Source: Syncephalis fuscata | Lineage: Eukaryota > Zoopagomycota > Zoopagomycetes > Zoopagales > Piptocephalidaceae | DNA: 64,000 bases | NCBI GenBank assembly: GCA_025786725.1 | Contig: JAHLTZ010000013.1 | Span: forward strand, 434,001-498,000 | Direction of reading: 5' to 3' | Part shown: piece by piece, positions 270 to 43,620 of the stretch | How positions within the stretch are numbered: the stretch's first letter is position 1 | Layout of the letters: every line of letters starts with the position of its first letter | Notes under the pieces: generated by a model | Seen by the model: the letters and a program-made list of their open reading frames with translations, nothing else | Told to the model about the DNA's origin: nothing | Databases searched by the model: none | Position numbers and translations under genes: made by a program

Positions 270-610
270 TCTATACTCAAATAAAACTTATTATCATAAG
301 ATTGGTATTAGCCTGGAATGTGTTATATATTGTTTATTATAAAACAATTATAATGTAATTTGTAACCAATTAAACATAATGACAAAGTATAGAAACATTA
401 AGTGTATTGTTAATGTTATTAACCATAATACGATGCAAGTATTAATGTTTATAATAATTTATAATTATTTATTTATGCCAGGTTTATTAAATAATTTATT
501 AAATAATTTAATGTGACTTGATGGCCAAATGACCACAATTAATAATATTCAATCTACTGAACATGATGATGGGTGGTAAGCGACATCAATCATCAAATAT
601 TCATCATTGT
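1..610 (+). repeat. Direct duplication, copy 1 (DUF4436 3' end plus flank)
   Basis: Bases 1-300 match 6228-6515 closely and bases 470-610 match about 6775-6905 more loosely. The second copy has extra DNA around 6515-6690. The block covers the gene's last intron and exon, the AT-rich downstream DNA, and the end of a foldback-like element. The two copies lie in the same orientation about 6.2 kb apart. Confidence 0.75.
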
Positions 611-1490
611 AGATTCATTATCCAATATGCATATATCATCACAGTATGTGTTATTACTATATATACCCGTCATTTTGTTTGAGTAGCATTAAAATCATAA
701 CTAATTGCCATGATCTAGTTTATTTATAAATAATCTTAATAAAACATAACCCGTTCATATCCATATTATCTGTTTTACCAATATAACTCAGTGAACAAAC
801 TAGGTATGATATGTCAATTTTTATTAATAAAAGAGTTGGAACCAAATAGACAACGGCTATAGACAGCGCATAGCCAATATAAAATAAAATAATAAGCATT
901 ATAATGGATATGCAATATTGAACGAGATTAGCTATGTCAAAGTTATTGGGCATATATGCATGCTCAAGCTGATTGACATTAGTTGAGATTTGTTCATAAT
1001 AGTGCTAGAACAAAAATAAAAAAGTTTTGGGTAGAACAAGGGTAGGCGAGTATAGAATAGTATATAAAATGATAAATGTACGGTGAGGAAACATATAAAA
1101 CGATGTTGAAGTTATAGCGCATATAGCATAATGAGGGGAATGAGTAGAGTGTGTTGAACATATAAACAATAGAATGTGTCTAGTATATCATAGAATGATG
1201 TATATTAGTGTGGAATAGAATAGAAATGATACATATGGATATAGGATATATGTGTACTGAATATATGCATACTGGATAATGAATCTATGATGATAAGTAT
1301 TTGATGATTGATGCCACTCACCACCCACCATCATGCTCAATAGGTTGAATGTTATTAAATGTAGTCATTTGACCATTAAATCACACTGTGATATGCTGAT
1401 TTGTCTATTTAATAAAACTTACCACTTGTCTCTATGTTCAATAGATTAAATATTTAGTTCAATTGCGCAAATATTATTAAGAATAGTCAT
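510..1490. mobile_element. Foldback-like repeat element, copy 1
   Basis: The left end (about 512-640, plus) and right end (about 1220-1480, minus) are inverted copies of each other. Both carry the family signature: a CAAATGAC-type motif, then TTCAATCTATTGAACATG-like DNA, then GGTGGTGAG, then ATTCATTATCCA. The interior holds diverged copies of the ~165-bp subrepeat seen in the other elements. The 720-953 minus open frame falls inside and is not a gene. No transposase is visible. Exact termini and target-site duplications could not be fixed. Confidence 0.6.
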
Positions 1491-2300
1491 TTGACCCCCA
1501 AATTATAATTATATTGCCAATACATTGTTAATAAAAGACAAATCGTTTTAATTATTGCTGATTTAATTACATTGAATAGACTATACCAAATGTAACTTAA
1601 TTTGAATATATTCTTAAAGAATTATAATAGTATACAACATATTTTATTAAAAGCAAGTACAAATAAAGTGAGAATAGAACTAATTAAAGCGAAGTGACTA
1701 TTTGTTTGTTAGTATTTGGATATAGATATTAAATGATACTTACTTTTTTGGGCGCGTTTAGTTTTCTTCTTTTCTTCAAATGATTCAAAAGAGCGTAAGC
1801 GTTTTACGCCTTTTGGAATCAATAAGGCAACATTAAACGTTGCCGAGACCGCAGCCGATACATTTGCAGCCAACTTGTTAGATGGTGATGCTGCAACTGG
1901 ATGGCTGGATGTTGATACTACAGCTGACTGACTGTATGTCGTTAGTGCTATAGTTGGGATGGTGGATTTGAAGCTGTAGGAGTAGCAACAGCATCAGCAG
2001 CCACATCTTGAGCGCCATCTTCGCTGCAAGATGCTTCCTTAAACCATCCACTGTTTAAGGCTTCATCGATAGTACAGCGCTTGGTACTATCGATGGTAAG
2101 CAGCCCTTGAAGCAAATGTTTGGCTATAATAAAATTAGTATTGTCCGCTATTTAATGTATTGTTACTTACCGTCTTGACTTAAGTCTGGCCGATTAACAT
2201 TCGCCAGATCAAGTTTATTACTGAATACATCAGTAATATACGTGATATGGCTGCCGTTATTGTAAGGCAATTGATCTAAAAACATATATTAGCTATTACT
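1000..2300 (-). repeat. Inverted duplication, copy 1 (kinase 3' part plus element end)
   Basis: Read on the minus strand, this block follows 19925-21235 on the plus strand nearly base for base. It covers the last kinase exons, their downstream AT-rich DNA and the outer end of a foldback-like element. Similarity fades into the element interior below position 1000. Confidence 0.8.
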
Positions 2301-2500
2301 ATTTAATATCTAAAGTATGCAATGTGTAATAATTATTGCTGTACTTACTGCAATGCACAATCTTGTTTGTGCGCATATGCTATTTAATGTTAATATCAAC
2401 ATATATAATATTAATGTGGCTTACCTGTACGATACTAAGCATTTGCTGAAAGATGTAGTCTTCTGGGTCAGTTTGAATAAAATCAGCTAATTTTTTTATA
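1735..2500 (-). pseudogene. Truncated Ser/Thr protein kinase copy
   Basis: On the minus strand the pieces are: an exon (about 2490-2430) encoding a DPEDYIFQQMLSI-type helix; a small exon (about 2380-2345) encoding HMRTNKIVHC, the start of a catalytic loop; and the 3' exons (about 2290-1740) for the end of the C-lobe and a Ser/Thr/Ala-rich tail. Compared with the kinase at 18839-20478, the whole N-lobe is missing, as is everything between the catalytic loop and the end of helix F (DIK, DFG, APE). That internal deletion joins two intron-like AT stretches. The tail also has frame breaks. It cannot make an active kinase. It lies within the inverted duplication. Confidence 0.75.
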
Positions 2501-5180: not shown

Positions 5181-6496
5181 ATGTCGCTGGTGAAACGGAC
5201 AGCACGTTTTCTACGACGACATGATTATATACGTCGTGCGCTCTGGATGCTGTTGGTATGCGTTCTCTACGTTATCATTGTAGTACCCGTCTACGAAGCT
5301 TATAATGAAGAAAGCGTGCGCCGACGTGTTTCCGTCAACCGAGCTCCGCTTCTTGCGGATATGGAAAAGCTGGGACAACGTGCAGACCAACTTAATGTGT
5401 CAATCAGTGATTTGGTATATAATAATGATACGTCAATTTCAGAGGCTGAGGATTTCATCGATATTCTACTTCGGGCAACCGGAGCCGATTTCGCCAACAA
5501 CGTTTTAAAAGTGCGTGCATCATTTCTACCTGTGGGGACCTTTGCTCTTGACAATGCCACAATAACTCAAGGAGATATTCGTGGTGCTGTAACAAAGTCT
5601 TTGAAGAACGGTATTGTAGATGCAGAGGGTCTTACAGCGCCATCTGCTTTGGCTACGCCTGTAATTGTGACCCTTGGTACAACAACAATAAAGTTTCCGG
5701 CAAATCAAACAATGTAAGTTAATGGCAAACCATACCATAATGATTATAAATAACCGTTGACTCATTATATCTATTTAGGGAGAACCGCGATCTACAAATA
5801 CCATTCCAAAACGGAAATCAAGCAGCATACCACTTGACAAGTACCCGACATCTATCTTCATAAAAGTATATCGGGAACAAGGCAACGATACTACAAAAGC
5901 GTATTTTCCTGTACCCTTCCAGGCTCATTTTGACGGTGCCGTACAATCAATTAGCTTTCGAGCATTTGTAATTTACGACTCGGTCACTGAGGCGTCTTTC
6001 TTCATTCGGACCCGACGCACCACAACAACAGTGGTATTTTCTGTGTTCATTTGTGTGCTAATGTGGTTCCTTACCTTGGGCCTTGGTATTCTATGGATGC
6101 AGCTTGTCGTACGTGGCCGTGAGGTTGCTCCGCCACACATGTCGGTAGGTATAGCCCTTTTATTTGCACTGCCTGGTTTGCGTAATTCTCAGCCGGCCAT
6201 TCCGCCAGTCGGTGTAGCCAGTGATATGTTTGGATATATTTGGTAGGTTAATGAATGCCAATGTATCGCTATTTTTTGTATTAATTTAAAAATATGTAAC
6301 CTATTATAGGAATATTACATTGATAACGATATTCTCAGTCAGCATTATTATTACATATACGCTACGATGGTCACCTCCCAAAAAAGAACCGGATCCAGTA
6401 CAAGTTGCAGTGTCAGAGCCAGTGGCACCAGCACAAGCTACACCAGCTGTGCCACCAAGCGATAATAAACATCCAAATACACCGTTGGTAGTGTGA
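5181..6496 (+). CDS. DUF4436-type multi-pass membrane protein
   Basis: The gene has three exons: 5181-5713, 5779-6242 and 6310-6496, with introns of 65 and 67 bp (GTAAGT and GTAGGT donors). It encodes about 394 residues. The start is the ATG at 5181 (MSLVKRT); the upstream extension has no ATG. One transmembrane helix lies near residues 20-42, followed by a large loop, then two or three helices near the C-terminus. The segment LRNSQPAIPPVGVASD is the kind of motif I associate with DUF4436 proteins of fungi and bacteria. The function is unknown. A frame break at about 5830 (CC where CCC is expected; restores a YPLDKYP motif) splits exon 2 and is probably a consensus error. The family call is from memory of motif style. 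A second, partial copy lies at 1-269. Confidence 0.7.
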
Positions 6497-6905
6497 TTTA
6501 CAGCAGGCATTAAGTAACAAACCTAAAAATGGTGACTGTGCAGCTAGAGAAATAAAAAAAAACATTTTTTGTTTGCTCAATATTCCATGTTATCCACTGT
6601 TAATGTCGGTGATAAAAATGACTAGTCAATACGAACTTTACATTATAATAATGTGTTGTATTAGCTAGTCACTGATATAAATTGTTAGTTAAATAAAACT
6701 TATTATCATAAGGTTGGTGTTGGTTTGGAATGTGTTCTATATCGTTTATTATATAACAATAACAATGTCCAAATTATTTATTTATGCCAAATTCGTTAAA
6801 TAGTTTATTACAATTTAGTGGTTTGTTTTGGTGGTCAAATAACTAAATTTAATAACATTTAATTTATTAAACATGATGATGGACGGTGAGTGACATCAAT
6901 CATCA
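6228..6905 (+). repeat. Direct duplication, copy 2, with a solo foldback-element end
   Basis: This matches 1-610 (see there). The segment about 6830-6905 is a diverged left end of the foldback-like family (AACATGATGATGGACGGTGAG and following). No matching right end was found downstream before 7.9 kb, so it looks like a solo or truncated end. Confidence 0.65.
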
Positions 6906-7269
6906 AATATAATGGTTTAAATACTCTACAGCAACAATTATAATATGAATTGACATTACTATTAATATTATTTATTTATTAACTGACTATAATAAACCAT
7001 AATGATGAATTTAATATTACTACCGCACATTATGATTCTCATATATACATTAGTACATATGCTAGCACATGTATTAGTATACAGTCTATATGCTGCCAAA
7101 ATCATTGCATTTGTTGTTTTGCCTTAGTTCGTCATTACATATCGTACCAACAGCAGATTATAGAGTCTCTGTAGTAGCAGATCACGTTGCCACTCTTGAT
7201 ATTGCACATGCTGTTGCTAGATAAACTACAACGGCATTTTATGGCAAGAATAGAATATACAACAAGACT
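6906..7269. other. AT-rich intergenic DNA
   Basis: I see no gene. The 7187-7405 open frame runs into a repeated segment and is not supported as coding. Confidence 0.4.
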
Positions 7270-7715
7270 TTCATGCATATATTTAACACAGCAGAAACAA
7301 GACCAAAAATGCACTTACCGTGTTGAAAAAGCTTATAATACAAATTATCAGAGTGATGATTTGCAAAAAAGGGTCAGATTACAAAAGAGTAATGCAAGGA
7401 CATAGTGTAGAAGGTGTATATACTTGACTATTAGTCAATCAAATACTAGCACTATCTATGTATAATATATAGAGTGTAAAAGTATATGGTATGGATATAT
7501 GTTGTCAAGTGTAAAGAAAGAGAAAGGAAATGTGATGAGGTAGATTGTGAGATGTGAGCCTGTCAGCCAATATTTATAAACTGCCGAGTTTAATTCATTA
7601 ATAAATGCAATGTGAAATAATAAAAGTCAATCTACCCAACATGTTGATACATCATAGAACAGATTAACAGTAAAGGAATAAATGCATTGAGAATAAAAGT
7701 AATTTACCCCCAAAA
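7270..7715. repeat. Dispersed direct repeat, copy 1 of 2
   Basis: This closely matches 16190-16590 in the same orientation. Shared landmarks are TGCACTTACCGTG, CTTGACTATTAGTCAATCAA, GATTGTGAGATGTGA, GTCAGCCAATATTTATAAA and AGTCAATCTACCCA. Read on the minus strand it has a TATA-like TTTATAAATATT about 250 bp before a consensus splice donor (ACACGGTAAGTGCA). It could be a promoter and untranslated first exon carried by a repeat. No coding exon follows in either copy. Confidence 0.6.
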
Positions 7716-7922
7716 CTACTCATTATTATAGAACATATATTCAGTATATTAAAAGATCAATTAAAAGAATAAAAATTATTTTATTATTAAAACTAATTAA
7801 TATCATTATCATAAAACACTTTGTATACACTAATAATAAAATAAATGATTAAATATTGTATTGTGTTGTGCATATCCTATTAGATTCATTACTAGTAATA
7901 AATAATGGTCGTAATAACTAGT

Positions 7923-9852: not shown

Positions 9853-9927
9853 GGTGTCGTTAAAATAAGTGGAATAATTAAAAGACTTTGATTAGAATGC
9901 CAATAAGCGTAGCATCAAAAGTGTTGT

Positions 9928-15456: not shown

Positions 15457-18430
15457 ACTGTTGTTGTTGCTTAAATTAACAATGACTTCAATAAAAAATA
15501 ACAGCAAAAATGTTATCTACGTGTTTGTGTGCAATGGTCCATTTTGACTATTTTATTTAAGTACTAAATTATTAATATTTTAATCTACTATATTATCTGG
15601 CTGTTACAATAAAACGTTATTGTTATTTATTACTATTGTTATACTGTGATATAATCATAGCCGGATAAATGATCTAATTCAATTGCGCATTTGACTTGAT
15701 ATTACGTCGTATTATTTCACAATTAGTTATACTACACTGTAAATATGAAATTATTTACTTTTAGTTTAAACAAAATATAGTAACATGTATTGTCTGTGTT
15801 TGTAGAGAACATAAAATATTCAATAAAACTTAGTAATACTTGGCTACATATTTCAAGAAAAGACGCGTGTTTAAATGTAGAGTGATAAAACATATGGTTG
15901 GAAAATGATCAACCAACGATAGACCATCAAACTTGACACTAATTACAGTACTGGTACAGGAAAGTAGTGTAAGGACTAGAATGTTATGCAGTTCTGTAAA
16001 CCGCCACTAGTTACAGACAGAGAAAAGTACTGATGAGTGGGAATGTTTAGATAATGAAATAACGAAGACAGTTGCTGTTGAAGTAACAGTGCATATTGCA
16101 CCACAGCCATCATACTGACAGTTGTGCACATATAGTAGTAGTCATAATCGTAGATTGCACTGTTGTATATGCATGGTAACAGCATAAAAACAAGTCAGAA
16201 ATGCACTTACCGTGTCAATAAAGCTGCCAATACCAATGATCGGAGTAATGAAGGTCAGATTATAAAAAAATAATGCAAGTACATAGTGTAGAAGGTGTTT
16301 GTACTTGACTATTAGTCAATCAAATACTGGTACTATCTATATATCATATATGGAGTATACAAGTATATGCAATGGATGTATACTATCAAGTGTAAAGAAA
16401 AAGAAAGAAAATGTAGTGACGTAGATTGTGAGATGTGAATTCTGTCAGCCAATATTTATAAAGACGTAAGCTTAATTTATTAATAAATGCAATGTAAATA
16501 ATAAAAGTCAATCTACCCAGCATGTTGGTACATCATAGAACAGATTAACAGTAAATGAATAAACGCATTAAAAATAAAAGTCATTTGACCTTTAAATTAC
16601 AATATAATTCAATAGTCTGGCCATTATTAAAATTCACCACTTAGTTCCATATCCAATAGAACGAATTTGTAGTTTAATTGCATGAATGTTATTAAATGTA
16701 GTTATTTGACCACTAAAGCATACCAAATATTAATTAATATTTAATATTGGCATATTATTAGTATATTTGCATAAACAACTGAACAAATAATTAGTATTAC
16801 CGTTAAATTTCAATGTAGATGTAATTATATTAAAGCTAGTTATGCTATGATACTATTTGTGAAAATAAAAAGCTACTTTTATTTAGCAAATAAAAAAGAA
16901 TAATAAATAATAAAAATATGCTACTACAAACCAAGTGCTAAATTGTGTATTGCGATCCTAATCTTGCGAAATATAAACAGTTCTTGAATATAATCTATAA
17001 AAGTGGTATAAGTAAACGATACATGTAAATCAATTATAGCAGTGATGCCTGCTGCATAACTACACCAAGACAAGCAATTTGGAATAGTTACTCTGCATAA
17101 ATACAAAAACCAGCAAGCCAGCGCAAAATCATTTGTATAATACCACCGGACAGAATCCCAGCCCATAAATATGCAGAATAGGCTATTACCACTGCTACTT
17201 CATAGCTGCTTAATTATAAAGGCTACTGTTTACGTCATTTATATACAATCTTTAGCACATATATACAGCATAAAACTAACAGCAGCTGCCTAAGCAACAC
17301 TCTATCTGTACCATCAAAATATCAAATATCAAGTATCAAATACCAAGTATTAAAATTGGTGTTAAGCAGTGGCTCAACAATATCTTCAAGCACAGCCTTC
17401 ATGTTGCACCGACAACCAAATAACTATACCAATGTAATTACCACAGGCAAGCACATAGTAAACACCCATATTCACTAATCAGTATAGCTAATTAACCATA
17501 TAGTATTGAAGCACCTTATGTAGCATATTGGAATTATGCCACAGTATTACATAGTTGTAGCCGACTATGTGTCTAAGAATGCTACCAAATCACACAGCCA
17601 AAAAGCACAACAGTACTGCCCACACAGATTCGTTTACTTAGCTTAGGTATGCAAAACAGTAATTAGCAGCAATCTTGTGATTACTAAAGTCTAACAAGTA
17701 AAAAGTGTACTGAACAATAGACAATGGTATGAAAAGACAAAAACGCAATGCTTGGTTCGGGGAAAGTGGCAAAGTCATTTTATGTGGCAAAAAATCGAAA
17801 CTGGTGAAAAGCATTCACGTTGCATAATTCAGTTGATAAAGCCTAATGGATAGATACTGATATTCGCTCATACTAACAACAGCTACATCGGCAAATAGTC
17901 ATAAATAATTGATTTGTTTGGACATATCCATACTCACTGTGCGTTATTAAGTGCACGGTGCTGGTTGTTATCAGGATCCAAGCCAATCCAGCCAATTAGA
18001 CTGTTCTTTTTGTTATGCCTTCCATACCCATTTAGTTTGTTGCATTAGTCATTCCAAAGCTTCGGAATCATCTTTACGCTTTTTTCCGCACACCTGAATT
18101 TACCTGTTTTGTAGTATGACAAATGCAACTTGTTATACTTTCATAACTAACTGTACAAATAATATGACAATGTGCATAATTAATATATTTGTTTATTGTT
18201 TATATTTCTATACTAATAAAATGAACATAACTATCGTTCGATAACTATCGTAAAGTGGGCAATTGATAAGATCTGAAACCAACACAAAATTGCGTCATTG
18301 ATGGCTTAATTAGACCGTTTTGCTAGTAGACCCGTAGCCGGACGATAACGACGATAAGAAATTGGGGCAATATAGCTTCTGAGCAAAAGCAAGAATCAAC
18401 ACTATACCTAAAGCAGCATTATACGTTCTA
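15457..18430. other. Gene-poor AT-rich region
   Basis: This contains the second copy of a dispersed repeat (16190-16590) and foldback-family terminal motifs (about 16590-16760). From about 16.9 to 17.9 kb the composition is slightly less AT-rich and may be relic sequence, but no protein similarity is recognisable. Small frames at 15976-16185 and 16924-17166 are not supported as genes. Confidence 0.4.
16190..16590. repeat. Dispersed direct repeat, copy 2 of 2
   Basis: This matches 7270-7715 (see there), including the CACTTACCGTG donor-like motif and the CAGCCAATATTTATAAA TATA-like motif. It is directly followed by degenerate foldback-family terminal motifs on the minus strand (GTTATTTGACCACTAAA near 16700). 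Confidence 0.6.
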
Positions 18431-18592
18431 ATGGCAAAGCGCTATGACCAAGATACACGCCGTCACAAGTCCTTTGTCGGTCTTTATTTGACTAAGCCCG
18501 ATATGTCGGTATCGGAGGTTCTACCGGAGTGTTTAAAGTGCATGTGCCGTTTTAAAATAAATTGTTATTGAAAGCAGTAGCAAGTGCAAAAA
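18431..18592 (+). pseudogene. Probable 5' remnant of a protein kinase gene
   Basis: An ATG at 18431 opens a frame of good base composition (MAKRYDQDTRRHKSFVGLYL) that ends at 18571. In the next frame, about 18505-18550 reads RYVGIGGSTGVFKVHVPF, which resembles a kinase glycine-rich loop (GxGxxGxV). One lost base near 18500 would join the two. Nothing further of the kinase follows; AT-rich DNA begins abruptly. It looks like a first exon left by truncation, lying 250 bp upstream of the kinase at 18839. The reading is tentative. Confidence 0.4.
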
Positions 18593-18838
18593 CAATTGTT
18601 ATATGACAGTGCAAAGCAATCAGCTAAAGACCATACCGCAGTAAATTGTGTAGAGCTAATGATGCTTTTGTGATAATATGGCATAGTATGGCTAGCCCAT
18701 AAGACAATGAATAAAGTGTGCAATGCGCAAATATAAAAATAAAATACCAATTGTGTTTCTTCCAACTTACTGTCAGTATATCGTTGTTTATCCGAGCTTG
18801 TTTATTGTATTTTTACTACACTATCTTTTAAAAAAGTA

Positions 18839-20478: not shown

Positions 20479-21235
20479 GTACCATTTAATATCTATATCC
20501 AAATACTAACAAACAAATAGTCACTTCGCTTTAATTAGTTCTATTCTCACTTTATTTGTACTTGCTTTTAATAAAATATGTTGTATACTATTATAATTCT
20601 TTAAGAATATATTCAAATTAAGTTACATTTGATATAGTCTATTCAATGTAATTAAATCAGCATAATTAAAACGATTTGTCTTTTATTAACAATGTATTGG
20701 CAATATAATTATAATTTGGGGTCAAATGACTATTCTTAATAATATTTGCGCAATTGAACTAAATATTTAATTTATTGAACATGGAGACAAGTGGTAAGTT
20801 TTATTAAATAGACAAATCATCACATATACTATGATTGGTGATCAAATGCTACATTTAATAACATTCAACTATTGAGCATGATGGTGGGTGGTGAGTGGCA
20901 TCAAAGTTAAAATACTCATCATCATAGATTCATTATCCAGTATGCACATATTCAATACACATATATCCAATATTCATATATATCATTTCTATTCTATTCC
21001 ACACTACTATAAATCATTCTATGATATACTAGACACATTCTATTGTTTATATGTATCAACACACTCTACTCATTCCCCTCATTATGCTATATGCGCTATA
21101 ACTTCAACATCGTTTTATGTGCTTTCTTACCGTACATTTATCATTTTATATACTATTCTATACTCGCCTACCCTTGTTCTACCCAAAACTGTTTTTATTT
21201 TTGTTCTAGCTTTATTATTTATAAATGTTGACTAA
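19925..21235 (+). repeat. Inverted duplication, copy 2 (kinase 3' part plus element end)
   Basis: This is the inverted partner of 1000-2300. It extends from the intron before the LPYNNGSHITY exon, through the kinase tail and downstream DNA, into the foldback-like element. Confidence 0.8.
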
Positions 21236-21900
21236 TTCCGCTCATTGATCATAATACATGCTCAATAACTTTGACATAGCTAATCGTCATTTCACACCGT
21301 ATATTCTTTATATTGTATATCATTTTATTGTCTAATAGCTACGCACTACCTATTGTAGTTGGTTTTTTGCTGCTAGCTTTATTGTTTGTAAACTTTGACT
21401 CATTTCGCCTATTCATTCATTAGGCCATATGCACTATAGTTTAACATAGCTAATTGCCACTCTGTATTGTATATTTGCTATATTGTATATTACTTTATTG
21501 TATAGTACATATGCGCTATTTATTACAACTACCGTTTGTTTTAGTCTTATTATTAATAAACATTTATTTATTCGTTGATTAAACTATATGTATTTGAAAC
21601 ATATAACAATAGTGTGTGTCTAGTATATTATAAATGATATATAGTATCGTGGAATAGAATGGGAATGATATAGGTGAATAAAGGATATATGTGTACTGAA
21701 TATATGCATACTAGATAATGAATCTATGATGATGAGTATTTTAGACTTTGATGCCACTCACCACCCATCATCATGTCAATAGATTTAATATTATTGAATG
21801 TAGTCATTTGACCACCAAATCATAGTATATGTGATGATTTGTCTATTTAATAAAACTTACCACTTGTCTCCATGTTCAATAGATTGAATGTGCAGTTCAA
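20700..21900. mobile_element. Foldback-like repeat element, copy 2
   Basis: The left end (about 20778-21060, plus) and right end (about 21594-21875, minus) are inverted copies over roughly 280 bp. The shared outer landmark is TTGAACATGGAGACAAGTGG, followed by TAAGTTTTATTAAATAGACA, then CATGATGRTGGGTGGTGAG about 100 bp further in. Between them are degenerate ~165-bp subrepeats beginning CTAGCTTTATT. The open frames at 20888-21235 are repeat sequence, not genes. Confidence 0.65.
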
Positions 21901-22316
21901 ATACATTTAATTTATTTATTTTATTATTAATACAGCATAATAGATGATTATTATTCATATATAAAATCATATTAATAATATTACTAATCGTTAACTTGTC
22001 CATCTATTGTGCTGGTGTACAACTAATAGACTAGCATCTAGAGTGTATATTAGCCGTAGTCATTTCTATAGTCATTGACCAATAACTTCATTTATAAAAA
22101 ACAATATCATACGTCAGTGGTGTCACAAATCAGCATCTACATCACACATATCAACGTATAACACGGCTCTTCTCGCCCCCAATACATACGTCTTGGTTTT
22201 ACTCACTTTTTTCTACTTCAACCTTGTGAATAAAGCACTGCCTACCCTCGTAACTATTGCTTTTTGCTTGCTCTCTACACCTAACAGCAACAACAACAGC
22301 AACAACACGGACGACA
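21901..22316. other. Transketolase upstream region
   Basis: The distal half is AT-rich. The last ~200 bp are pyrimidine-rich with a CTCGCCCCCAATACATACG segment near 22165, typical of a strong housekeeping promoter or 5' leader. No specific factor site is claimed. Confidence 0.35.
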
Positions 22317-30199: not shown

Positions 30200-30990
30200 T
30201 ACTCTATTCCAAATGTATTGATCGAATAGCGAATAAATAAAGTTTGTATTTACTTCTATGTAGAAATATATGAATGAGTGAATGGGAGCGTGTATAAATA
30301 TTTATGGTCAAGTTATAGTATACATGACAACAAGATAAGCGAAATAAAGCGAGATTATACCGAATAAAGCTAATTACAAACAAGCAATAGTATTAAATAA
30401 AGTGTGTCCATTAGAACATATAACAATGTAAAACAAAACAAATAGACAATAAAGAGTGTATAAATGATGACATTGAAAGTGTAGTACATATGGCTTAACA
30501 AGTGAATGAACGAATGAGCCAAAATTTATGACGAATAGAGACGGTGATAAATGAACAGCGATTTTGAATAGATAGCAGTCAATATATGATGAAAACATAC
30601 AATATAATGAATATACAACTTCGTTGTATAAATAGCAGTACTGAAGCTATAGTGCAATGAGGGGAATGAGTAGAGTGTGTTGGTGTATATAATAAATAGA
30701 ATGTGTCTAGTATATCATAGAATGATGTATAGTAGCGTGGAATGGAATAGAAATGATACATATGAATATAGGATATATATGTACTGAATATGTGCATACT
30801 AAATAATGAATCTATGATGATAAGTATTTGATGATTGATGTCACTCACCACTCACCATCATGTTCAATAGATTTAATATTGTTAAATTTAGTGGCAGGCA
30901 AGTTCTGCTTTAAGCGGATAGGTCCTACAGACCGTTGCCTCACATCAGCAAAATATAAAGAATAAAGAATGTTATTAAATTTAGTCATTT
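30200..30990. mobile_element. Foldback-like repeat element, copy 3 (one clear end)
   Basis: The right end (about 30640-30990, minus) matches the family ends well: GGGGAATGAGTAGAGTGTG, then CTAGTATATCATAGAATGAT, ACTCACCACTCACCATCATG, and GTCATTTGACCACCAAG. The interior to the left (30240-30640) has the degenerate subrepeats. No clear left end was found, so it may be truncated. An insertion-like GC-richer patch (GCGGATAGGTCCTACAGACC) breaks the end near 30910-30945. Confidence 0.55.
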
Positions 30991-31449: not shown

Positions 31450-31785
31450 TTGGTTTAACAAGTGGGCTTGAATTGCATCGTTGATGAACCAACATCAGGC
31501 TCAATTTCATTGTCGATTCCAATGCTCGATGTCACTAAAGCATTCATTGCATTTGTGCCGATAATAAGTCTCCGGGAGTTGTCTTTATATTGTATGGTCG
31601 CATGCACACCAGGATACAATGCGTCACTTGGTGGATGTAATGTCATTCTTGAACTTTTCCCAGTTAGAATCGTTCATGGTGTGCATCGACAGATGGAGTA
31701 CGCCCATATACTTCTAGACAATTGACTAGAATCGCGGCTGTACCCTCCATCAGTATAGCGCCTGTTAAAACTATTGCTGTTGAAT
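31450..31785 (-). pseudogene. Fragment of the zinc-finger gene family (copy of 35595-35905)
   Basis: On the minus strand, about 31770-31450 reads closely with the zinc-finger gene's internal region from AGAILMEGTTAILVNCLEVY to EPDVGSSTMQFKPTC. One base is missing near 31672 (GATTCTAAC versus GATTCCTAAC), which breaks the frame, and a TAA follows KPTC. Upstream homology stops at an acceptor-like TTTTAACAG. The rest of the gene is absent. It shows that the family has been copied at least once in this region. Confidence 0.75.
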
Positions 31786-32279
31786 AAAAAGAACAAAGAT
31801 GATTGAAACTTAATATTTAAAATGTGAAGAGCTCATAAGATACTATTTTATCGGCTAAAATGTAACAGCTTATTTATACTGGTCATAAATATTAGTAAAT
31901 CATCAATGAACTACAATTGTATCAGGTAACTAATAGATGTCAATCATTATCAGCATATCAGTCCTGTACAAGTATGACAGATGTGTCAAGACATTGATGT
32001 CTTTAGTTGTTCGTGTTTTGACCGATCATGCTACTGATTGCATAGCACTATATAGCTTTTACAGCCTGTAATTACGGCCATATTTGCATATTTGCCAATT
32101 GTGTCTAATTAAAAGCTTAAAGATTCTAACATTTTTTATTAAGTAAAATATGGCAATCATTTAAAATATTGTGTTTATTTAATATTATTACGCAATTTAT
32201 TTCTATAATAATTTATAATTAATTTATTATAATCTAAGCATTAAATGGCAGCAATTGCCAATATCTGTTTAATTGGATT
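31786..32279. other. AT-rich DNA without a recognisable gene
   Basis: No coding or RNA feature is recognised in this stretch. Confidence 0.35.
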
Positions 32280-33340
32280 AGACACTTAGTTTGTCAAAGG
32301 TAAATATGGGTGATGCGTTATGTCAGTCATCAAAGCAGCAAATCATAAATTTGTCATCATAATTATCCTGTATCCATATCGTCTATTCGTCCATAGTATT
32401 ATTTCTATATACCTATACTACTATATATTACCTTAGCATATATCAATCACTTCATATTACAGGTTAATATTTTTTAATGCTGGTTATACTAGTTATAAAT
32501 TTTGTTTCACTCATTGTGCCATATATACAATTACTTAATAATGTCATGTCCTTTATTGTATATTCATTTTAATGTATATCATTATATCGTATAACAAACA
32601 TTGACTTTTATTGCCATCTAATTTAACATATTGTTACCATTGCTTAAATTACTAGATTCAACGAAGTTCATTTTAAGCTTCGTTGTACTTAAATTAAGCT
32701 TTTCTCGTCAGGGTCCTTTGCCTGATCCTCCATTTTAATTGCCGACAGCATTGTAAATACTTAATGCTGCCGGCCAAACATTAAATAAATAACTTTTTTA
32801 CTTTCAATTACTTTTAGCTTATTTTCAGGTTTATACACTTGAGACTTCTGTTTAAATTACTGAATAAAGCTATTTATTGTTAACAAAAGGCGTTAAGCTA
32901 TTAAATTAATCATATTTATTAGTTTAAATAATTAACAAGTGAATAAGCTACCTTTATTGTTTTTTCTTTTATTTGGGGTGCTTAGCAAAGCTTACAAAAC
33001 CATAAAACTAATTTTGTAACAATATATTCAATTTAATTTTTTCATTTTGTTGTCATAAATACAGCAACTTCATCACTAACATTCATATAACTCCACCTAT
33101 TAGATTATAACAACTATACAAAGCATATATTCAAACAAATAAAATACCTCAAAGTTTATAAAGAATAAATTTAATTAGTATATGATAAAATACTATGTAT
33201 TAATATAAGCATATAAAGATAGTGATATATGTGAATAAAGTAGATGCGTGTACTGATAATGATGATAAACTGATAATTTAATAACTAATATTACTTATTG
33301 CACACGTTTATCTTCATTAGGATAAATGTTGTCATTTGCC
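32280..33340. mobile_element. Foldback-like repeat element, copy 4 (diverged)
   Basis: The left end (about 32290-32430: GGGTGATGCG, then GTCAGTCATCAAAG and ATTATCCTGTATCCATAT) and right end (about 33170-33330: TATGATAAAATACTATG, then GATAATGATGATAAACTG) resemble the family ends in inverted arrangement. They are much more diverged than in the other copies. Boundaries are approximate. Confidence 0.4.
32659..32775. other. Cluster of three hairpins
   Basis: Within 117 bp there are three inverted repeats: CAACGAAG/CTTCGTTG (32659-32685), TCAGG/CCTGA (32708-32725), and GCCGACAGCATT/AATGCTGCCGGC (32741-32774, one mismatch). They are GC-richer than their surroundings and lie inside the diverged element copy. 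They could be a structured RNA or element-internal hairpins. Confidence 0.55.
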
Positions 33341-34757: not shown

Positions 34758-36459
34758 ATGACTTCCAAGAATCTACTCACTTGCCAATTTTGCCCAGGAT
34801 CTTTATTTAAAACTAAAGGTAGTCTTAGATACCACCAATCTAAAGAACACACCAAGAGTGTTAAAATTACCTTAGTGGGTTTAGGTAGCTTTAATTAAAA
34901 GCTTTAAATAAAGTTAATTAATTTTATTTTATATTTATCTACAGGTCAAGTCACTATCATTAGAAATGAAGACAATATGTTTGTTTGTCCTTGCGGTGCA
35001 TTTTTTCCCGGAAGAGCATCAGTTGCTAGACATGGCAAGCAGTGTGATGGCAAACAAAATCAAGGTAAGCAAGAATAGTATTTTAAAAGTGAAATTAACA
35101 TTAGTTTATTATTTAGGCGACAAACTGGGCTTAATTACATCTATTGGACTAAATACAGCCAACGACCAATTGTCAGCTACAGCCCCGCGATCATTTAACC
35201 ACGCAACATTATCTGCATGCGGTGCTCTCAAAGAAACACCGGATGCTCAGCGTAAAACACTCCGAGTTGTAGATGCATTGGAACTGAAACCAATTGCCTT
35301 AACAGGCCCAGATGGTTTCGAATACAACTTGCTGGGTGACAGTTCGGTAGTTTCTCGTCTAGTAGCTTATCAGCCTGCCGTGACTTTCAATGCTGCTCAT
35401 AGTGAGAAAAGCAAAACAGTAGATGACAATATCGGCTGCTCTAGCAGCGACTTGTCCCATTTAATTCAACATGGGCCATACAATAACTGCATAAGTATAA
35501 ACGACTTTTCCGAGCTGGATGCCAAACTTTGTTATCATTTGAACAAGGATTGGCGATTTAAAAAATCGATGATGTACTTTTGTTCACAAGTACTTGCAGG
35601 GGCCATACTGATGGAGGGTACAACCGCAATTCTAGTTAATTGTCTAGAAGTATATGGGCGTACTCCATCTGTCGATGCACACCATGAACGATTCCTAACT
35701 GGGAAAAGTTCAAGAATGACGTCACATCCACCAAATGACTCATTGTATCCTGGTGTGCATGCGACCATACAATATGAAGACAACTCCCGGAGACTTGTTA
35801 TCGGTACGAATGCAATGAATGCTCTAGTGACATCGAGCATTAGAATCGACAATGAAATTGAGCCTGATGTTGGTTCATCAACGATGCAATTCAAGCCCAC
35901 TTGTAAAACTAGAATTTTTGTGTCGTCAAAGAGCGCTAAATATGCAATGGAATTCATTGAACAAAAGCCGCCTTGCGAGCTATATCCATTTGATACATGT
36001 TCACAATTACGGCAGCTAAGATCAAAATTTAACAACCCCACAACATATTTACTTCTACGTTCATCATCGTCATACACGAACCGGTGTTATTTGCGGCCCT
36101 ATACAATTTGGACACTTGCTGATTTTGATTCGACTGCTGCATTACCTTCACAATCAAGCATGGCATCAAAAATGTTCCAGCTTGTCATATTTGCAGTTAT
36201 AAATGGTACCAATGCTCTCAAGAAGGATGAAATTGAAACCTTGTACGCGGACTGTTCCGATGGAGTGACAAAGGCCTCACTGGAGGCGATTCTAAATCAA
36301 TTTGGATCTTCTGACGAACTTATGGTGTTGAAAAACACCAACTTGAACATGGTGCTAAAACAAATGGCAACAAGCATGATGACTGATCTACAACGGATCA
36401 ACAAGAAAGTTGCCGTATCCATTCTGGATGCCTTTAAATCGCTATGTTCTCATTCTTAA
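34758..36459 (+). CDS. Two-zinc-finger protein of unknown family
   Basis: Three exons: 34758-34884, 34945-35064 and 35117-36459 (introns 60 and 52 bp), 529 residues, no frame break. The start ATG (MTSKNLLTCQFC) gives a C2H2 finger: CQFC, 12 residues, H, 4 residues, H. Exon 2 adds a second finger of C-x-C, 12 residues, H-x4-C form (VCPCGAFFPGRASVARHGKQC region). The remaining ~450 residues form a long, unrecognised region with motifs GPDGFEYNLLGD, YPGVHATIQYEDNSRRLVIG and EPDVGSSTMQFKP. The splice joins were chosen because they keep the fingers in frame. The gene is the only intact one in the repeat-rich 29.7-46.2 kb stretch, and a fragment of it lies at 31450-31785. It may belong to a mobile element or a lineage-specific expanded family; no transposase motif is recognised. 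Confidence 0.7.
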
Positions 36460-36689
36460 AGTATTTAAGTGTATCATTAAATTGTAGCAATATGAGCTGG
36501 TCGACGTTATTATATTAAATAAATAGTATTTATTTTATTGTTGTTATTGCACTAGCATTAATATTGATTTGGTTTAAAGTTTAACATGATTGATGGTCAA
36601 ATGATTACAATTGATTATATTCGCATAATGAAACTAAAATTTGTTTTATTAAAGATGGGGCCGGATGGTAAAAAATATTCATCATCACA

Positions 36690-38112
36690 TCATCCCATTT
36701 AACATGGTTTGGTGATTAAATGACTACATTTAATAACATTCAACCTATTGAACATGATGGTGGGTGGTGAGTGGCATCAAAGTTTAAAATACTCATCATC
36801 ATAGATTCATTATTCAGTATGCACATATCCAATACACATATATCCAATATTCATATATATCATTTCTATTCCATTCCACGCTACTATATATCCTTTTATG
36901 ATATACTAGACACATTCTATTGTTTATATGTTTCAACACACTCTACTCATTCCCCTCATTGCACTATATGCGCTATAACGTCAACAGCATTTTATATGTT
37001 TCCTCACCGTACATTTATCATTTTATATACTATTCTATACTTGCCTAGCCTTGCTCTATCCAAAACTATTTTTATTTTTGTTCTAGCTTTATTATTTATA
37101 AATGCCGACTAATTCTGCTCATTGATCATGCATACATGCTCAGTAACTTTAACACGACTAATCGTCACTCAATATTGCATATTCAGTATATTGTATGTTA
37201 TTATACTATATTGTAACTGTGTGATAGCTCTTGCAGTTGTTCTTTTACTGCTAGCTTTATTTTTTTGTAAATTTCAGCTCAATCGCTCATTGGCTCATGC
37301 ATATATGCTCAGTAACTTCAACACTACTAATCGTACAGTTTCCACTGTATACTAAGTATATTGTGTATCGCTCTACCATATAACTGCTACACTTTGTTCA
37401 AACATGTTGTCTGTTTAATTCTAGCTCTACTAACTGTGATTGTTTACTCATTTGTTCAATGGGCAATATGCGCTACAGCTTTAACATCGCTGTTTGTATT
37501 TTGCCATTGTGTTCAGTATCATGGATTATTATGTCATCTAATAGCCAAAAGTGCTAATAAAAGCTGTCTATTTATTGCTAACTATATTCATTATGAATTT
37601 CGAGTCATTTGCTCATTAGGTTATATACACCACAGTCTCAACATCATTATCTATACACTCTTATTGTCTATTTGTTTTATTCTATATCGTTGCATGTTCT
37701 AATAATCACATTCTATTCAACACTGTTGTTCGTTTGCCACTAGCTTTATTCGTTGTAAATCTTGCTTCTATTTGCTCACTCTTTATGTTTTAGATAAGAC
37801 ATAAATGACGTTGTTGAAACAATAATGCATTTTAGCTTAATGAATGAAATGAGTGAATTCACAAATAATGGAGTTATTTCCAAACGGACAATAATTTTGA
37901 ATAAAGTTGGCTAATATATGATGAAATACTATATGTTTGTATAAATGTACAATGATAGTAATATGAATGAATACATCTATGTATACAGGATAATAAACTT
38001 ATAATTGATGGTTTGATGATTGGTGCTACTCATCGCCTGTCTTTATATTCACCAAAAAAAAAGTTTAGCTCAACTGCGCGAATGTTACTAATGTATTCAT
38101 TTGATTCTAAAT
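36690..38112. mobile_element. Foldback-like repeat element, copy 5
   Basis: The left end (about 36700-36900, plus) carries AACATGATGGTGGGTGGTGAG and ATTCATTATTCAGTATGC. The right end (about 37950-38110, minus) carries the inverted equivalents, more diverged. Between them are five to six degenerate ~165-bp subrepeats; starts of the CTAGCTTTATT-type motif are near 37083, 37251, 37421, 37576 and 37740. Open frames at 36771-37702 come from these repeats and recur, inverted, at 42749-43545. They are not supported as genes. Confidence 0.65.
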
Positions 38113-38951
38113 ACAAAAATGTTTGATTAATAAAATGTTTAATATCAATTTAAAAACAATGGCAGAACTAGATGGGATAGCTGGTCAAATAAACCACTGA
38201 TGTTATCATTAAAATGGTAACGTGGACGTAATTGTATTGAGTGTAACTTGCTTTAGTATTTTAGGTAAGATAATGACATTTTAATATGGTTCAAGTAACT
38301 AAATGACGCGTTGCGCATAAAGATACTACGAATAGACCAGTCGTTACAAGCAAAAAATCGTCAATACGTTGTATGGCAGTAGTGCTTTATAGTTGCAATT
38401 GCCGGCCAGATATGGTGATTTTATAATAAAAGCTTTCAATGTCATAAACAACTTCATTATCTTGTTAATGATATAAATATAAGTAAAACAACATTATCAC
38501 TGTAGATCAAATAGACGGTATACATTTGGTATTATATATATATATATATGTGTGTGTATTTACTAGTTATTTGTTTATATTTATTTATAGCCGTACGTTT
38601 TGAAAAATAAAATAAATATGCATTCGATAAATTCACTTCTAGCTACTTGCTGCTGTTATCATACGCGTTAAGCGATTTTAAAAAATAAAAACTTATTGTG
38701 CACCAAATAAATGCAAATCTGCCAATGACTGTCCAGACTTGACGTAATACATTGTCATCAAATCATATTGTTTAAAGCAAAATAACTTGGTCGTGCTATA
38801 TTTGACCATTTGCTGTGTATAAATGTTGATGATTAGCTGTAGTCTAGTTTATTTAACATGTAAACAATTAAGATTTATTTGTATTTGGTCAATCCACCTA
38901 TTTTCATTTAGACACACCTGCGCTGTTCATTTTATCTGTGATGGTCTGTGT

Positions 38952-39131
38952 GCGCACTTGCTTTTTGTGATGGTTTCAAGAGCGCACTTGCTTTTTGTGA
39001 TGGTTTCAAGAGCGCACTTGCTTTTTGTGGTGGTTTCAAGAGCGCACTTGCTTTTTGTGGTGGTTTCAAGAGCGCACTTGCTTTTTGTGGTGGTTTCAAG
39101 AGCGCACTTGCTTGCTGTGGTGATCTTGTGT
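38952..39131 (+). repeat. 30-bp minisatellite array, 6 copies
   Basis: The monomer is GCGCACTTGCTTTTTGTGRT followed by GGTTTCAAGA; R is A or G. The last copy is the variant ending GATCTTGTGT. The 30-bp period is a multiple of three and the monomer is largely stop-free, so long spurious reading frames result. Confidence 0.95.
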
Positions 39132-39509
39132 GCGCCTCATGTTCACCATAACCATTCAGCTTTATTTGCTTCCACCTAGTTGGCTAGCAAAACAACTTAT
39201 CACGTTTATTTACAACATTCCACATACATAATTGTGGTTAACAAAAAACATAATAAATAGCCATTCACAAATAAATATAGCACAATTTGGTGTTTGTAAA
39301 ATCGATAGAAACATAAAAACAAATGCTATCTGAAGCAAAATAACTTGGTCGTGCTATATTTGACCATTTGCTGTGTATAAATGTTGATGATTAGCTGTAG
39401 TCTAGTTTATTTAACATGTAAACAATTAAGATTTATTTGTATTTGGTCAATCCACCTATTTTCATTTAGACACACCTGCGCTGTTCATTTTATCTGTGAT
39501 GGTCTGTGT

Positions 39510-39749
39510 GCGCACTTGCTTTTTGTGATGGTTTCAAGAGCGCATTTGCTTTTTGTGGTGGTTTCAAGAGCGCACTTGCTTTTTGTGATGGTTTCAAGAG
39601 CGCACTTGCTTTTTGTGGTGGTTTCAAGAGCGCACTTGCTTTTTGTGATGGTTTCAAGAGCGCACTTGCTTTTTGTGGTGGTTTCAAGAGCGCACTTGCT
39701 TTTTGTGGTGGTTTCAAGAGCGCACTTGCTTGCTGTGGTGATCTTGTGT
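39510..39749 (+). repeat. 30-bp minisatellite array, 8 copies
   Basis: The monomer is the same as in the array at 38952. A and G variants alternate irregularly, one copy has GCGCATTTGC, and the last copy is the GATCTTGTGT variant. Confidence 0.95.
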
Positions 39750-40127
39750 GCGCCTCATGTTCACCATAACCATTCAGCTTTATTTGCTTCCACCCAGTTG
39801 GCCAGCAAAACAACTTATCACGTTTATTTACAACATTCCACGTACATAATTGTGGTTAACAAACAACATAATAAATAGCCATTCACAAATAAATATAGCA
39901 CAATTTGGTGTTTGTAAAATCGATAGAAACATAAAAACAAATGCTATCTGAAGCAAAATAACTTGGTCGTGCTATATTTGACCATTTGCTGTGTATAAAT
40001 GTTGATGATTAGCTGTAGTCTAGTTTATTTAACATGTAAACAATTAAGATTTATTTGTATTTGGTCAATCCACCTATTTTCATTTAGACACACCTGCGCT
40101 GTTCATTTTATCTGTGATGGTCTGTGT

Positions 40128-40247
40128 GCGCACTTGCTTTTTGTGATGGTTTCAAGAGCGCACTTGCTTTTTGTGATGGTTTCAAGAGCGCACTTGCTTT
40201 TTGTGATGGTTTCAAGAGCGCACTTGCTTGCTGTGGTGATCTTGTGT
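40128..40247 (+). repeat. 30-bp minisatellite array, 4 copies
   Basis: This is the shortest array: three standard A-type copies and the terminal variant. Confidence 0.95.
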
Positions 40248-40462
40248 GCGCCTCATGTTCACCATAACCATTCAGCTTTATTTGCTTCCACCTAGTTGGC
40301 CAGCAAAATTGTGCTATATTTATTTGTGAATGGCTATTTATTATGTTTTTTGTTAACCATAATTATGTATGTGGAATGTTGTAAATAAACGTGATAAGTT
40401 GTTTTGCTGGCCAACTGGGTGGAAGCAAATAAAGCTGAATGGTTATGGTGAACATGAGGCGC

Positions 40463-40762
40463 ACACAAGATCACCACAAAAAGCAAGTGCGCTCTTGAAA
40501 CCACCACAAAAAGCAAGTGCGCTCTTGAAACCATCACAAAAAGCAAGTGCGCTCTTGAAACCACCACAAAAAGCAAGTGCGCTCTTGAAACCACCACAAA
40601 AAGCAAGTGCGCTCTTGAAACCATCACAAAAAGCAAGTGCGCTCTTGAAACCATCACAAAAAGCAAGTGCGCTCTTGAAACCACCACAAAAAGCAAGTGC
40701 GCTCTTGAAACCACCACAAAAAGCAAATGCGCTCTTGAAACCATCACAAAAAGCAAGTGCGC
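40463..40762 (-). repeat. 30-bp minisatellite array, 10 copies
   Basis: This is the longest array, on the minus strand. Here the last copy carries GATCACCACAAAAAGC (plus-strand reading) in place of the GATCACCACAGCAAGC found in the other arrays. One monomer has the GCAAATGCGC variant also seen in the 8-copy array. Confidence 0.95.
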
Positions 40763-41140
40763 ACACAGACCATCACAGATAAAATGAACAGCGCAGGTGT
40801 GTCTAAATGAAAATAGGTGGATTGACCAAATACAAATAAATCTTAATTGTTTACATGTTAAATAAACTAGACTACAGCTAATCATCAACATTTATACACA
40901 GCAAATGGTCAAATATAGCACGACCAAGTTATTTTGCTTCAGATAGCATTTGTTTTTATGTTTCTATCGATTTTACAAACACCAAATTGTGCTATATTTA
41001 TTTGTGAATGGCTATTTATTATGTTTTTTGTTAACCACAATTATGTACGTGGAATGTTGTAAATAAACGTGATAAGTTGTTTTGCTGGCCAACTGGGTGA
41101 AAGCAAATAAAACTGAATGGTTATGGTGAACATGAGGCGC

Positions 41141-41350
41141 ACACAAGATCACCACAGCAAGCAAGTGCGCTCTTGAAACCACCACAAAAAGCAAGTGCGC
41201 TCTTGAAACCACCACAAAAAGCAAGTGCGCTCTTGAAACCACCACAAAAAGCAAGTGCGCTCTTGAAACCACCACAAAAAGCAAGTGCGCTCTTGAAACC
41301 ATCACAAAAAGCAAGTGCGCTCTTGAAACCATCACAAAAAGCAAGTGCGC
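41141..41350 (-). repeat. 30-bp minisatellite array, 7 copies
   Basis: The monomer is the same on the minus strand. Four G-type copies are followed by two A-type copies, with the terminal variant at the low-coordinate end. Confidence 0.95.
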
Positions 41351-42229
41351 ACACAGACCATCACAGATAAAATGAACAGCGCAGGTGTGTCTAAATGAAA
41401 ATAGGTGGATTGACCAAATACAAATAAATCTTAATTGTTTACATGTTAAATAAACTAGACTACAGCTAATCATCAACATTTATACACAGCAAATGGTCAA
41501 ATATAGCACGACCAAGTTATTTTGCTTTAAACAATATGATTTGATGACAATGTATTACGTCAAGTCTGGACAGTCATTGGCAGATTTGCATTTATTTGGT
41601 GCACAATAAGTTTTTATTTTTTAAAATCGCTTAACGCGTATGATAACAGCAGCAAGTAGCTAGAAGTGAATTTATCGAATGCATATTTATTTTATTTTTC
41701 AAAACGTACGGCTATAAATAAATATAAACAAATAACTAGTAAATACACACACATATATATATATATATAATTACCAAATGTATACCGTCTATTTGATCTA
41801 CAGTGATAATGTTGTTTTACTTATATTTATATCATTAACAAGATAATGAAGTTCGTTTATGACATTGAAAGCTTTTATTATAAAATCACCATATCTGGCC
41901 GGCAATTGCAACTATAAAGCACTACTGCCATACAACGTATTGACGATTTTTTGCTTGTAACGACTGGTCTATTCGTAGTATCTTTATGCGCAACGCGTCA
42001 TTTAGTTACTTGAACCATATTAAAATGTCATTATCTTACCTAAAATACTAAAGCAAGTTACACTCAATACAATTACGTCCACGTTACCATTTTAATGATA
42101 ACATCAGTGGTTTATTTGACCAGCTATCCCATCTAGTTCTGCCATTGTTTTTAAATTGATATTAAACATTTTATTAATCAAACATTTTTGTATTTAGAAT
42201 CAAATGAATACATTAGTAACATTCGCGCA

Positions 42230-43620
42230 GTTGAGCTAAACTTTTTTTTTGGTCAATATAAAGACAGGCGATGAGTAGCACCAATCATCAAACCATCAAA
42301 TTATAAGTTTATTATCCTGTATACATAGATGTATTCATTCATATTACTATCATTGTACATTTATACAAACATATAGTATTTCATCATATATTAGCCAACT
42401 TTATTCAAAATTATTGTCCGTTTGGAAATAACTCCATTATTTGTGAATTCAACTCATTTCATTCATTAAGCTAAAATGCATTATTGTTTCAACAACGTCA
42501 TTTATGTCTTATCTAAAACATAAAGAGTGAGCAAATAGAAGCAAGATTTACAACGAATAAAGCTAGTGGCAAACGAACAACAGTGTTGAATAGAATGTGA
42601 TTATTAGAACATGCAACGATATAGAATAAAACAAATAGACAATAAGAGTGTATAGATAATGATGTTGAGACTGTGGTGTATATAACCTAATGAGCAAATG
42701 ACTCGAAATTCATAATGAATATAGTTAGCAATAAATAGACAGCTTTTATTAGCGACTTTTGGCTATTAGATGACATAATAATCCATGATACTGAACACAA
42801 TGGCAAAATACAAACAGCGATGTTAAAGCTGTAGCGCATATTGCCCATTGAACAAATGAGTAAACAATCACAGTTAGTAGAGCTAGAATTAAACAGACAA
42901 CATGTTTGAACAAAGTGTAGCAGTTATATGGTAGAGCGATACACAATATACTTAGTATACAGTGGAAACTGTACGATTAGTAGTGTTGAAGTTACTGAGC
43001 ATATATGCATGAGCCAATGAGCGATTGAGCTGAAATTTACAAAAAAATAAAGCTAGCAGTAAAAGAACAACTGCAAGAGCTATCACACAGTTACAATATA
43101 GTATAATAACATACAATATACTGAATATGCAATATTGAGTGACGATTAGTCGTGTTAAAGTTACTGAGCATGTATGCATGATCAATGAGCAGAATTAGTC
43201 GGCATTTATAAATAATAAAGCTAGAACAAAAATAAAAATAGTTTTGGATAGAGCAAGGCTAGGCAAGTATAGAATAGTATATAAAATGATAAATGTACGG
43301 TGAGGAAACATATAAAATGCTGTTGACGTTATAGCGCATATAGTGCAATGAGGGGAATGAGTAGAGTGTGTTGAAACATATAAACAATAGAATGTGTCTA
43401 GTATATCATAAAAGGATATATAGTAGCGTGGAATGGAATAGAAATGATATATATGAATATTGGATATATGTGTATTGGATATGTGCATACTGAATAATGA
43501 ATCTACAACGATGAGTATTTGATGATTGATGTCATTCACCATCAACTAGCATGTTCAATAGATTAGATGCTATTAAATGTAGCCATTTGACCACCGGATC
43601 ATGTTAAATGGCAATAAATA
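42230..43620. mobile_element. Foldback-like repeat element, copy 6 (inverted twin of copy 5)
   Basis: This is the reverse complement of the element at 36690-38112, almost identical except for its outermost ~100 bp (43520-43620), where the two diverge (CATGCTAGTTGATGGTGAAT versus CATGATGGTGGGTGGTGAGT on the same strand). Confidence 0.65.

What the first reader, a model, noticed from the sequence alone, without database searches (positions are those of the whole stretch)
510..43620. A Foldback-like, apparently non-autonomous element family in at least six copies
Seen: copies at about 510-1490, 20700-21900, 30200-30990 (one end), 32280-33340 (diverged), 36690-38112 and 42230-43620, plus a solo end near 6830. 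Each full copy has inverted ends of about 0.2-0.4 kb with a shared signature (CAAATGACTACATTTAATAA, then ATTGAACATGATGRTGGGTGGTGAG-like DNA, then ATTCATTATYCAGTATGC) around a repetitive interior. No transposase is encoded. I know of no fungal family with this layout, though I cannot search. Inference: a DNA transposon-derived foldback/MITE-like family mobilised in trans.
Basis: partly seen in the sequence, partly recalled or inferred. Interest (0 to 1): 0.75.

Follow-up and report, generated by a model that had tools for sequence, protein, structure and literature searches.

The report
Foldback transposons beside a glycosylase gene
A fungus that preys on other moulds carries hundreds of hairpin-shaped jumping-gene ends, and at two kinds of place they lie right beside a previously unnamed gene that looks like a DNA-repair enzyme fused to DNA-binding fingers.

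Summary
The window lies in Syncephalis fuscata, an early-diverging fungus. The terminal signature is a genome-wide family: 699 places match a 23-base core with up to 3 mismatches, against 0 for the reversed control. Copies are foldback-like, with composite inverted ends; the main size classes are about 0.5-1.4 kb and 6.5-7.7 kb. The 'copies' at 36690-38112 and 42230-43620 are the outer parts of one 6.9 kb palindrome. Below its outermost ~100 bp (76% identical) its arms, where compared, are 97-100% identical. No target-site duplication and no transposase inside an element could be shown, so the superfamily is open. The finding does not mention the neighbouring gene (34758-36459): C2H2 fingers plus a domain whose predicted fold matches human alkyladenine DNA glycosylase in two models, with the active-site residues in place; sequence profiles do not support membership. 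Four near-identical contigs carry a 34%-identical relative in the centre of ~14 kb palindromes (one read only in part), between outward-facing family ends. In the window only the 3' side is clearly flanked that way, and outward-facing end pairs also occur without the gene. Named relatives are from Mucoromycota. A transposon-linked zinc-finger glycosylase-like protein would be new; the link is suggestive only.

The parts
518..1502 (.). foldback-like element copy A; ends 518 (+) and 1379 (-), extra outer tandem module to 1502
   Evidence: S profile 105.5 and 119.2 bits, outer module 15.8 bits; folds as a hairpin, z -8.2
6827..6909 (+). solo end
   Evidence: S profile 63.9 bits, E 1.5e-18
16672..16716 (-). 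short end fragment (weak)
   Evidence: S profile 13.8 bits, E 0.0046
20716..21903 (.). foldback-like element copy B with duplicated end modules on both sides
   Evidence: S profile 102.9 bits at both main ends, outer modules 15.4 and 16.8 bits
30342..30999 (-). one-ended copy, outer end at 30999
   Evidence: S profile 93.3 bits at 30892 plus outer module 15.0 bits; 30342-30559 matches palindrome interior 37563-37773 at 72%
32263..33333 (.). diverged copy; left end supported, right end not significant
   Evidence: S profile E 3.2e-4 and E 0.23
34758..36459 (+). three-exon gene (34758-34886, 34947-35066, 35119-36456, then stop), 529 aa, same as BDF19DRAFT_413340: N-terminal C2H2 fingers plus AAG-like fold
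   Evidence: 100% match to the public protein; exon map; fold matches
31453..31764 (-). inverted, disrupted fragment of the same gene
   Evidence: 94.6% to 35597-35909; tblastn 87% and 77% pieces, each with a stop
36595..43611 (.). 6.9 kb palindromic (foldback) element or inverted duplication; end homology to copies A and B from 36595, palindrome proper from 36695
   Evidence: arms 96% overall with the minisatellite; 97-100% per 100 bp below the outer 100 bp over the first ~2.1 kb
36708..38084 (.). left 1.4 kb S-to-S' unit inside the palindrome
   Evidence: S profile 112.5 and 29.8 bits
42221..43596 (.). right 1.4 kb S-to-S' unit inside the palindrome
   Evidence: S profile 26.4 and 100.0 bits
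38775..41527 (.). palindrome centre: mirrored ~0.56-0.62 kb blocks with 30-bp minisatellites; the query 38500-39300 was found at length only here and on contig C193
   Evidence: families D1-D3; 12 matches, 3 of them ~50 bp on other contigs

Best explanation
A high-copy, foldback-type DNA transposon family of Syncephalis fuscata. Shown: copies are bounded by composite inverted ends made of one or two tandem ~115-bp modules; short copies (0.5-1.4 kb) and long ones (6.5-7.7 kb) recur; the two long palindromes read (window ~36.6-43.6 kb; contig C26 15241-22896) have ~3.2 kb arms that are nearly identical. Inferred: an unidentified transposase acts on the modules in trans; hairpin or cruciform formation and inverted recombination at the ends copy elements with their flanks into giant palindromes and keep the arms alike. 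A gene for a C2H2-finger, AAG-fold protein lies right beside family ends at two diverged kinds of locus. I think it may be a partner or cargo of the family (about 40%), with fingers that bind the modules and a glycosylase-like domain that acts on modified or flipped bases at the ends. Both biochemical steps are inferred.
For: Genome-wide ends with zero reversed-control hits. End modules mapped by profile with no reversed-control hit below E 1.7. Sizes from listed exact motif pairs facing inward: 0.49-0.93 kb, and eight pairs at 6.45-6.67 kb. Arms: window palindrome; C26 15241-18418 against 22896-19719, 99.5%; 6 kb arms around the gene in C26 (99.3%) and C99 (99.1%). Similarity to the other copies ends 30 bp outside an S end at C241:25139. 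Gene between outward-facing ends in C26, C99, C217 and C241. In both kinds of locus end homology starts within about 150 bp of the stop codon: window stop 36459, homology from 36595; C26 frame end 8278, homology from about 8424. Fold: human AAG is the top hit of both models and fills VIA ranks 1-7 (seven entries of one protein).
Against: No target-site duplication. No transposase found inside an element that was read. The four gene-bearing contigs are near-identical and share flanks, so they count as one event. In the window the nearest significant end 5' of the gene is the (+) end at 32263, which points towards the gene; the outward arrangement there needs the unsupported end at 33333 or the end at 30999, 3.8 kb away. 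Outward-facing exact motif pairs under 6 kb also occur at seven other places, C11, C13, C89, C159, C247 (two) and C248, where the two gene searches found no copy. A sixth, decayed gene copy (C232) has ends only ~5 kb away. Sequence profiles do not link the protein to AAG, and no Foldseek match is below E 1e-3.
Confidence: 0.45

Rival explanations
1. An ordinary non-autonomous foldback/MITE family of a known superfamily (Mutator-like or another), moved by a transposase elsewhere in the genome; the finger-glycosylase gene is only a neighbour.
For: 14 matches to the MULE transposase domain in this genome, 10 over the curated cut-off. At C247 (two mirrored places) and C240 MULE fragments lie 5.9-7.0 kb from a listed motif, on its inner side. 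Known foldback elements mostly belong to Mutator (PMC4079207, passages; PMC3169594, abstract). Ends are dense in this window, and outward-facing pairs occur without the gene.
Against: No 9-bp target-site duplication detected. No listed motif lies closer than 5.9 kb to a MULE match (lists cut at 100 places each). The gene lies close to ends at a second, diverged kind of locus.
Confidence: 0.45
2. The large palindromes are assembly or foldback-read artefacts.
For: Foldback artefacts in long reads are known (PMC12870357, search listing only). The gene-bearing palindromes all lie at contig ends.
Against: The outer 100 bp of the window arms differ (76%), and the arms differ in minisatellite length. 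Flanks of the window palindrome differ. The ~6.66 kb class recurs on five contigs.
Confidence: 0.07
3. Segmental duplications of host genes produced the copies; the ends are not mobile.
For: Copies A, B and two in C157 share 0.9-1.4 kb of kinase-like flanking DNA.
Against: Hundreds of dispersed ends, and most compared end flanks do not match each other over their length.
Confidence: 0.03

Closest known systems
Foldback (FB) elements and FB-like Tetris, Tm1, Galileo (animals)
   Same: long, modular inverted ends with internal tandem repeats, variable or non-coding middles, association with inversions (PMC4079207 passages; PMC3169594 abstract; Galileo papers in search listing only)
   Different: no 8-10 bp target duplication found here, transposase unknown, fungal host, two main size classes; a finger-glycosylase gene beside some copies (a comparison with the FB-NOF composite would be from recall)
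MITEs
   Same: short (0.5-1.4 kb) copies with inverted ends and no large ORF in those read, hundreds of ends
   Different: composite ends and a 6.5-7.7 kb class; no target duplication shown
Alkyladenine DNA glycosylase (AAG/MPG, PF02245)
   Same: predicted fold of the central domain; E, Y, H, P, Y spaced +2, +11, +27, +33 against +2, +11, +28, +34 in human AAG
   Different: no sequence-profile match; C2H2 fingers and a C-terminal helical part; beside a repeat family
Fungal DNA transposons carrying TET/JBP dioxygenases
   Same: precedent for a DNA-base-modifying enzyme encoded on fungal transposons (PMC12730594, abstract start and two passages)
   Different: different enzyme class; there the transposases are named; here linkage is by position only

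Membership tests
Foldback-type elements | long inverted repeats able to fold back | tested here: met
Foldback-type elements | inverted repeats built of tandem modules | tested here: met
   14 of 42 end sequences (some ends counted twice) carry a second module by a regular-expression test; duplicated modules by profile
Foldback-type elements | 8-10 bp target-site duplication | tested here: inconclusive
   21 elements against mispaired controls: no excess; termini not exact in all copies
Mutator superfamily | MULE transposase between the ends | tested here: inconclusive
   MULE matches exist; their flanks could not be fetched
piggyBac | TTAA target plus DDE_Tnp_1_7 transposase | tested here: inconclusive
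   TTAA precedes the terminus in several copies; no PF13843 match, but the control also found none
AAG DNA glycosylase (PF02245) | AAG fold (predicted) | tested here: met
AAG DNA glycosylase (PF02245) | catalytic residues E125, Y127, Y159, R182 | tested here: met
   by order and spacing: E260 18/18, Y262 17/18, Y293 18/18; R325 16/18 by my assignment; residue roles from PMC12347255 passages
AAG DNA glycosylase (PF02245) | sequence-profile similarity | tested here: not met
   no PF02245 match in the genome up to E 10; hhalign probability 0.5% and 0.2%
AAG DNA glycosylase (PF02245) | base-excision activity | not testable with these tools
   needs a biochemical assay

The most novel reading that the evidence does not exclude
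A new kind of mobile system in early-diverging fungi: foldback elements paired with an element-borne C2H2-finger, AAG-fold DNA glycosylase that reads the end modules and removes or senses modified adenines there, either to undo silencing in lineages rich in 6-methyladenine or to open the hairpin ends through abasic sites and so drive inverted duplication.
Probability: 0.2. Interest if true: 0.88.

Novelty: new variant of a known kind. Interest (0 to 1): 0.6.

Why it matters
Foldback elements whose transposase is unknown are a standing puzzle; this genome offers hundreds of ends, two main size classes and giant palindromes, some with breakpoints at element ends. If the finger-glycosylase belongs to them, it would be a base-excision-type protein working for a transposon, in fungal lineages where 6-methyladenine is prominent (PMC8470550 abstract; PMC8298701 search listing), and it gives direct tests.

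Tried and rejected
Target-site duplications: exact-adjacency test on 21 elements gave mean 1.05 against 0.95 for mispaired ends; longest shared direct word 9.1 against 8.9. Rejected as evidence either way.

AAG by sequence: PF02245 search of the genome (its control rings in 3 of 14 genomes) and hhalign of two family alignments with an AAG alignment found nothing; the hhalign stretch does not pair the active sites. Pfam on 18 members gave zinc fingers and chance rows (25 of 30 families shown). PDB sequence search gave mostly zinc-finger proteins and no AAG among the 60 of 100 hits shown.

piggyBac was considered because TTAA often precedes the terminus; no PF13843 match, but the control also found none. 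Telomere repeats (TTAGGG x4): 0 places, so a telomeric role of the arrays is neither supported nor excluded. Literature searches in whose listings I saw no paper on a glycosylase-bearing transposon or on transposable elements in S. fuscata: (that library only; titles and abstract starts).
Full report
Where it is. The window is G000:C35:434001-498000 of a 28.95 Mb, 299-contig assembly. The window gene matches Syncephalis fuscata BDF19DRAFT_413340 at 100%, on a record of 668,898 bases, the same length as C35. That S. fuscata is a mycoparasite is recalled.

The repeat is real. A 23-mer core has 699 with up to 3 mismatches and 0, of which 142 are exact. A 28-mer has 367 with up to 1 mismatch and 0. 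A 301-base end query gave 41 matches, only 40 of 1087 candidates being scored. If most copies have two ends, that is a few hundred copies (inference).

Anatomy. I call the end module S. It runs from a TTTGGTGGTCAAATGACTA-like start through AACATGATGATGGGTGGTGAGTG to a CAGTATGCATATATC-like part. A second upstream module of about 115 bp is common: 14 of 42 end sequences by one test, some ends counted twice, and visible in the alignment. A profile from 37 end sequences outside the window maps the window copies and has no hit below E 1.7 in the reversed window. In listed exact motif pairs facing inward, short ones span 0.49-0.93 kb, and eight pairs span 6.45-6.67 kb on C26, C241, C206, C216, C220 (6.65-6.67 kb) and C185, C255, C284 (6.45-6.46 kb). 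Four more inward pairs under 20 kb fall outside both classes: 3.3, 9.2, 14.0 and 15.2 kb. Outward-facing pairs under 20 kb number 12 in one list and 1 in the other; four of the 12 are the gene contigs (2.89-2.90 kb), and seven more are under 6 kb (C11, C13, C89, C159, C247 twice, C248). The lists are cut at 100 places, of which I used the 94 exact ones and all 100.

Terminus. At C241:25139 similarity to the other copies ends 30 bp outside an S end, and the shared sequence starts ACAATTTGC. In several copies TTAA precedes the same point; at the C241 junction it does not. Whether TTAA is target or element is open. Target-site duplications could not be shown.

The palindromes. In the window 36695-39906 pairs with 43611-40306. 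The outermost 100 bp are 76% identical, the next 97%, then 98-100% per 100 bp over the first ~2.1 kb. This sharp switch lies inside S, as expected if inverted recombination or copying started within the end module (inference). Contig C193 repeats the right half and its flank at 99.1%, probably an alternate assembly of the same locus. C157:27997-37114 is a second inverted duplication: kinase-like flank plus element on both sides of a 4.5 kb spacer with an MFS-type gene, arms 99.9% identical and ending at the element ends on the inner side. C26 holds two: the 6 kb-armed one around the gene, and element 15241-22896 with 3.18 kb arms at 99.5%.

The gene. Window exons are 34758-34886, 34947-35066 and 35119-36456. 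Relatives at 34% identity lie on C99, C217, C26 and C241. These four are 98.4-99.5% identical in DNA to C26 over 8.5-18.5 kb and share flanks where both were read, so they are one event. The palindrome was read at ~14.4-14.6 kb in C26, C99 and C241 and in part in C217. The longest open frames over the main exon are 534 aa (C217), 503 (C26) and 451 (C99); the C241 match is interrupted by stops. A decayed copy lies at C232:90372-91678, with family ends about 5 kb away on each side. In C26 the gene lies between outward-facing ends at 6267 (E 9e-12) and 8561 (E 3e-37; end homology from about 8424). In the window end homology starts at 36595, 136 bp after the stop, and the main module at 36708. On the window's 5' side the nearest significant end, 32263, points towards the gene; 30999 is 3.8 kb away. 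With about 350 ends per orientation in 29 Mb, an end within 250 bp in the right orientation has a chance of about 0.3% genome-wide, more in this end-rich window (my estimate).

Reading. The repeat family is a foldback-type DNA element of unassigned superfamily (confident). The gene as partner or cargo is about 40%; I lowered this on re-checking. A precedent for base-modifying enzymes on fungal transposons is the TET/JBP work (PMC12730594, abstract start and passages). Early-diverging fungi carry high 6mA (PMC8470550 abstract), which makes a 6mA-related role the boldest reading; no activity was tested.

Noticed in passing
window 1434-2319 and 19769-20783; L050 1-1019 and 7094-8500: kinase-like flanking DNA is duplicated together with the element at four places (91.7-94.8% to L050)
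   Followed up: partly
G000 C68, C113, C228, base 1 (L058-L060): three long contigs begin with exactly the same base inside the S end, an assembly-graph node or a real break
   Followed up: partly
G000 C247 6206-53941: MULE fragments and S motifs lie almost mirror-symmetrically around ~30 kb, suggesting a ~48 kb inverted duplication (coordinates only)
   Followed up: no
window 39381-41479: 30-bp minisatellite blocks keep open frames of 155-185 aa (one on +, two on -); the weak Pfam helicase row for the one scanned is probably repeat chance
   Followed up: no
C26 14253-15173, C241 14242-15211 and 23004-24197: 22-bp minisatellite at the outer ends of the 6 kb arms, flanking another foldback element
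   Followed up: partly
window 1-254 / 6228-6481 and 7295-7705 / 16188-16586: direct repeats (90% and 84%) of other unidentified sequences
   Followed up: no
whole assembly: no (TTAGGG)4 anywhere
   Followed up: no
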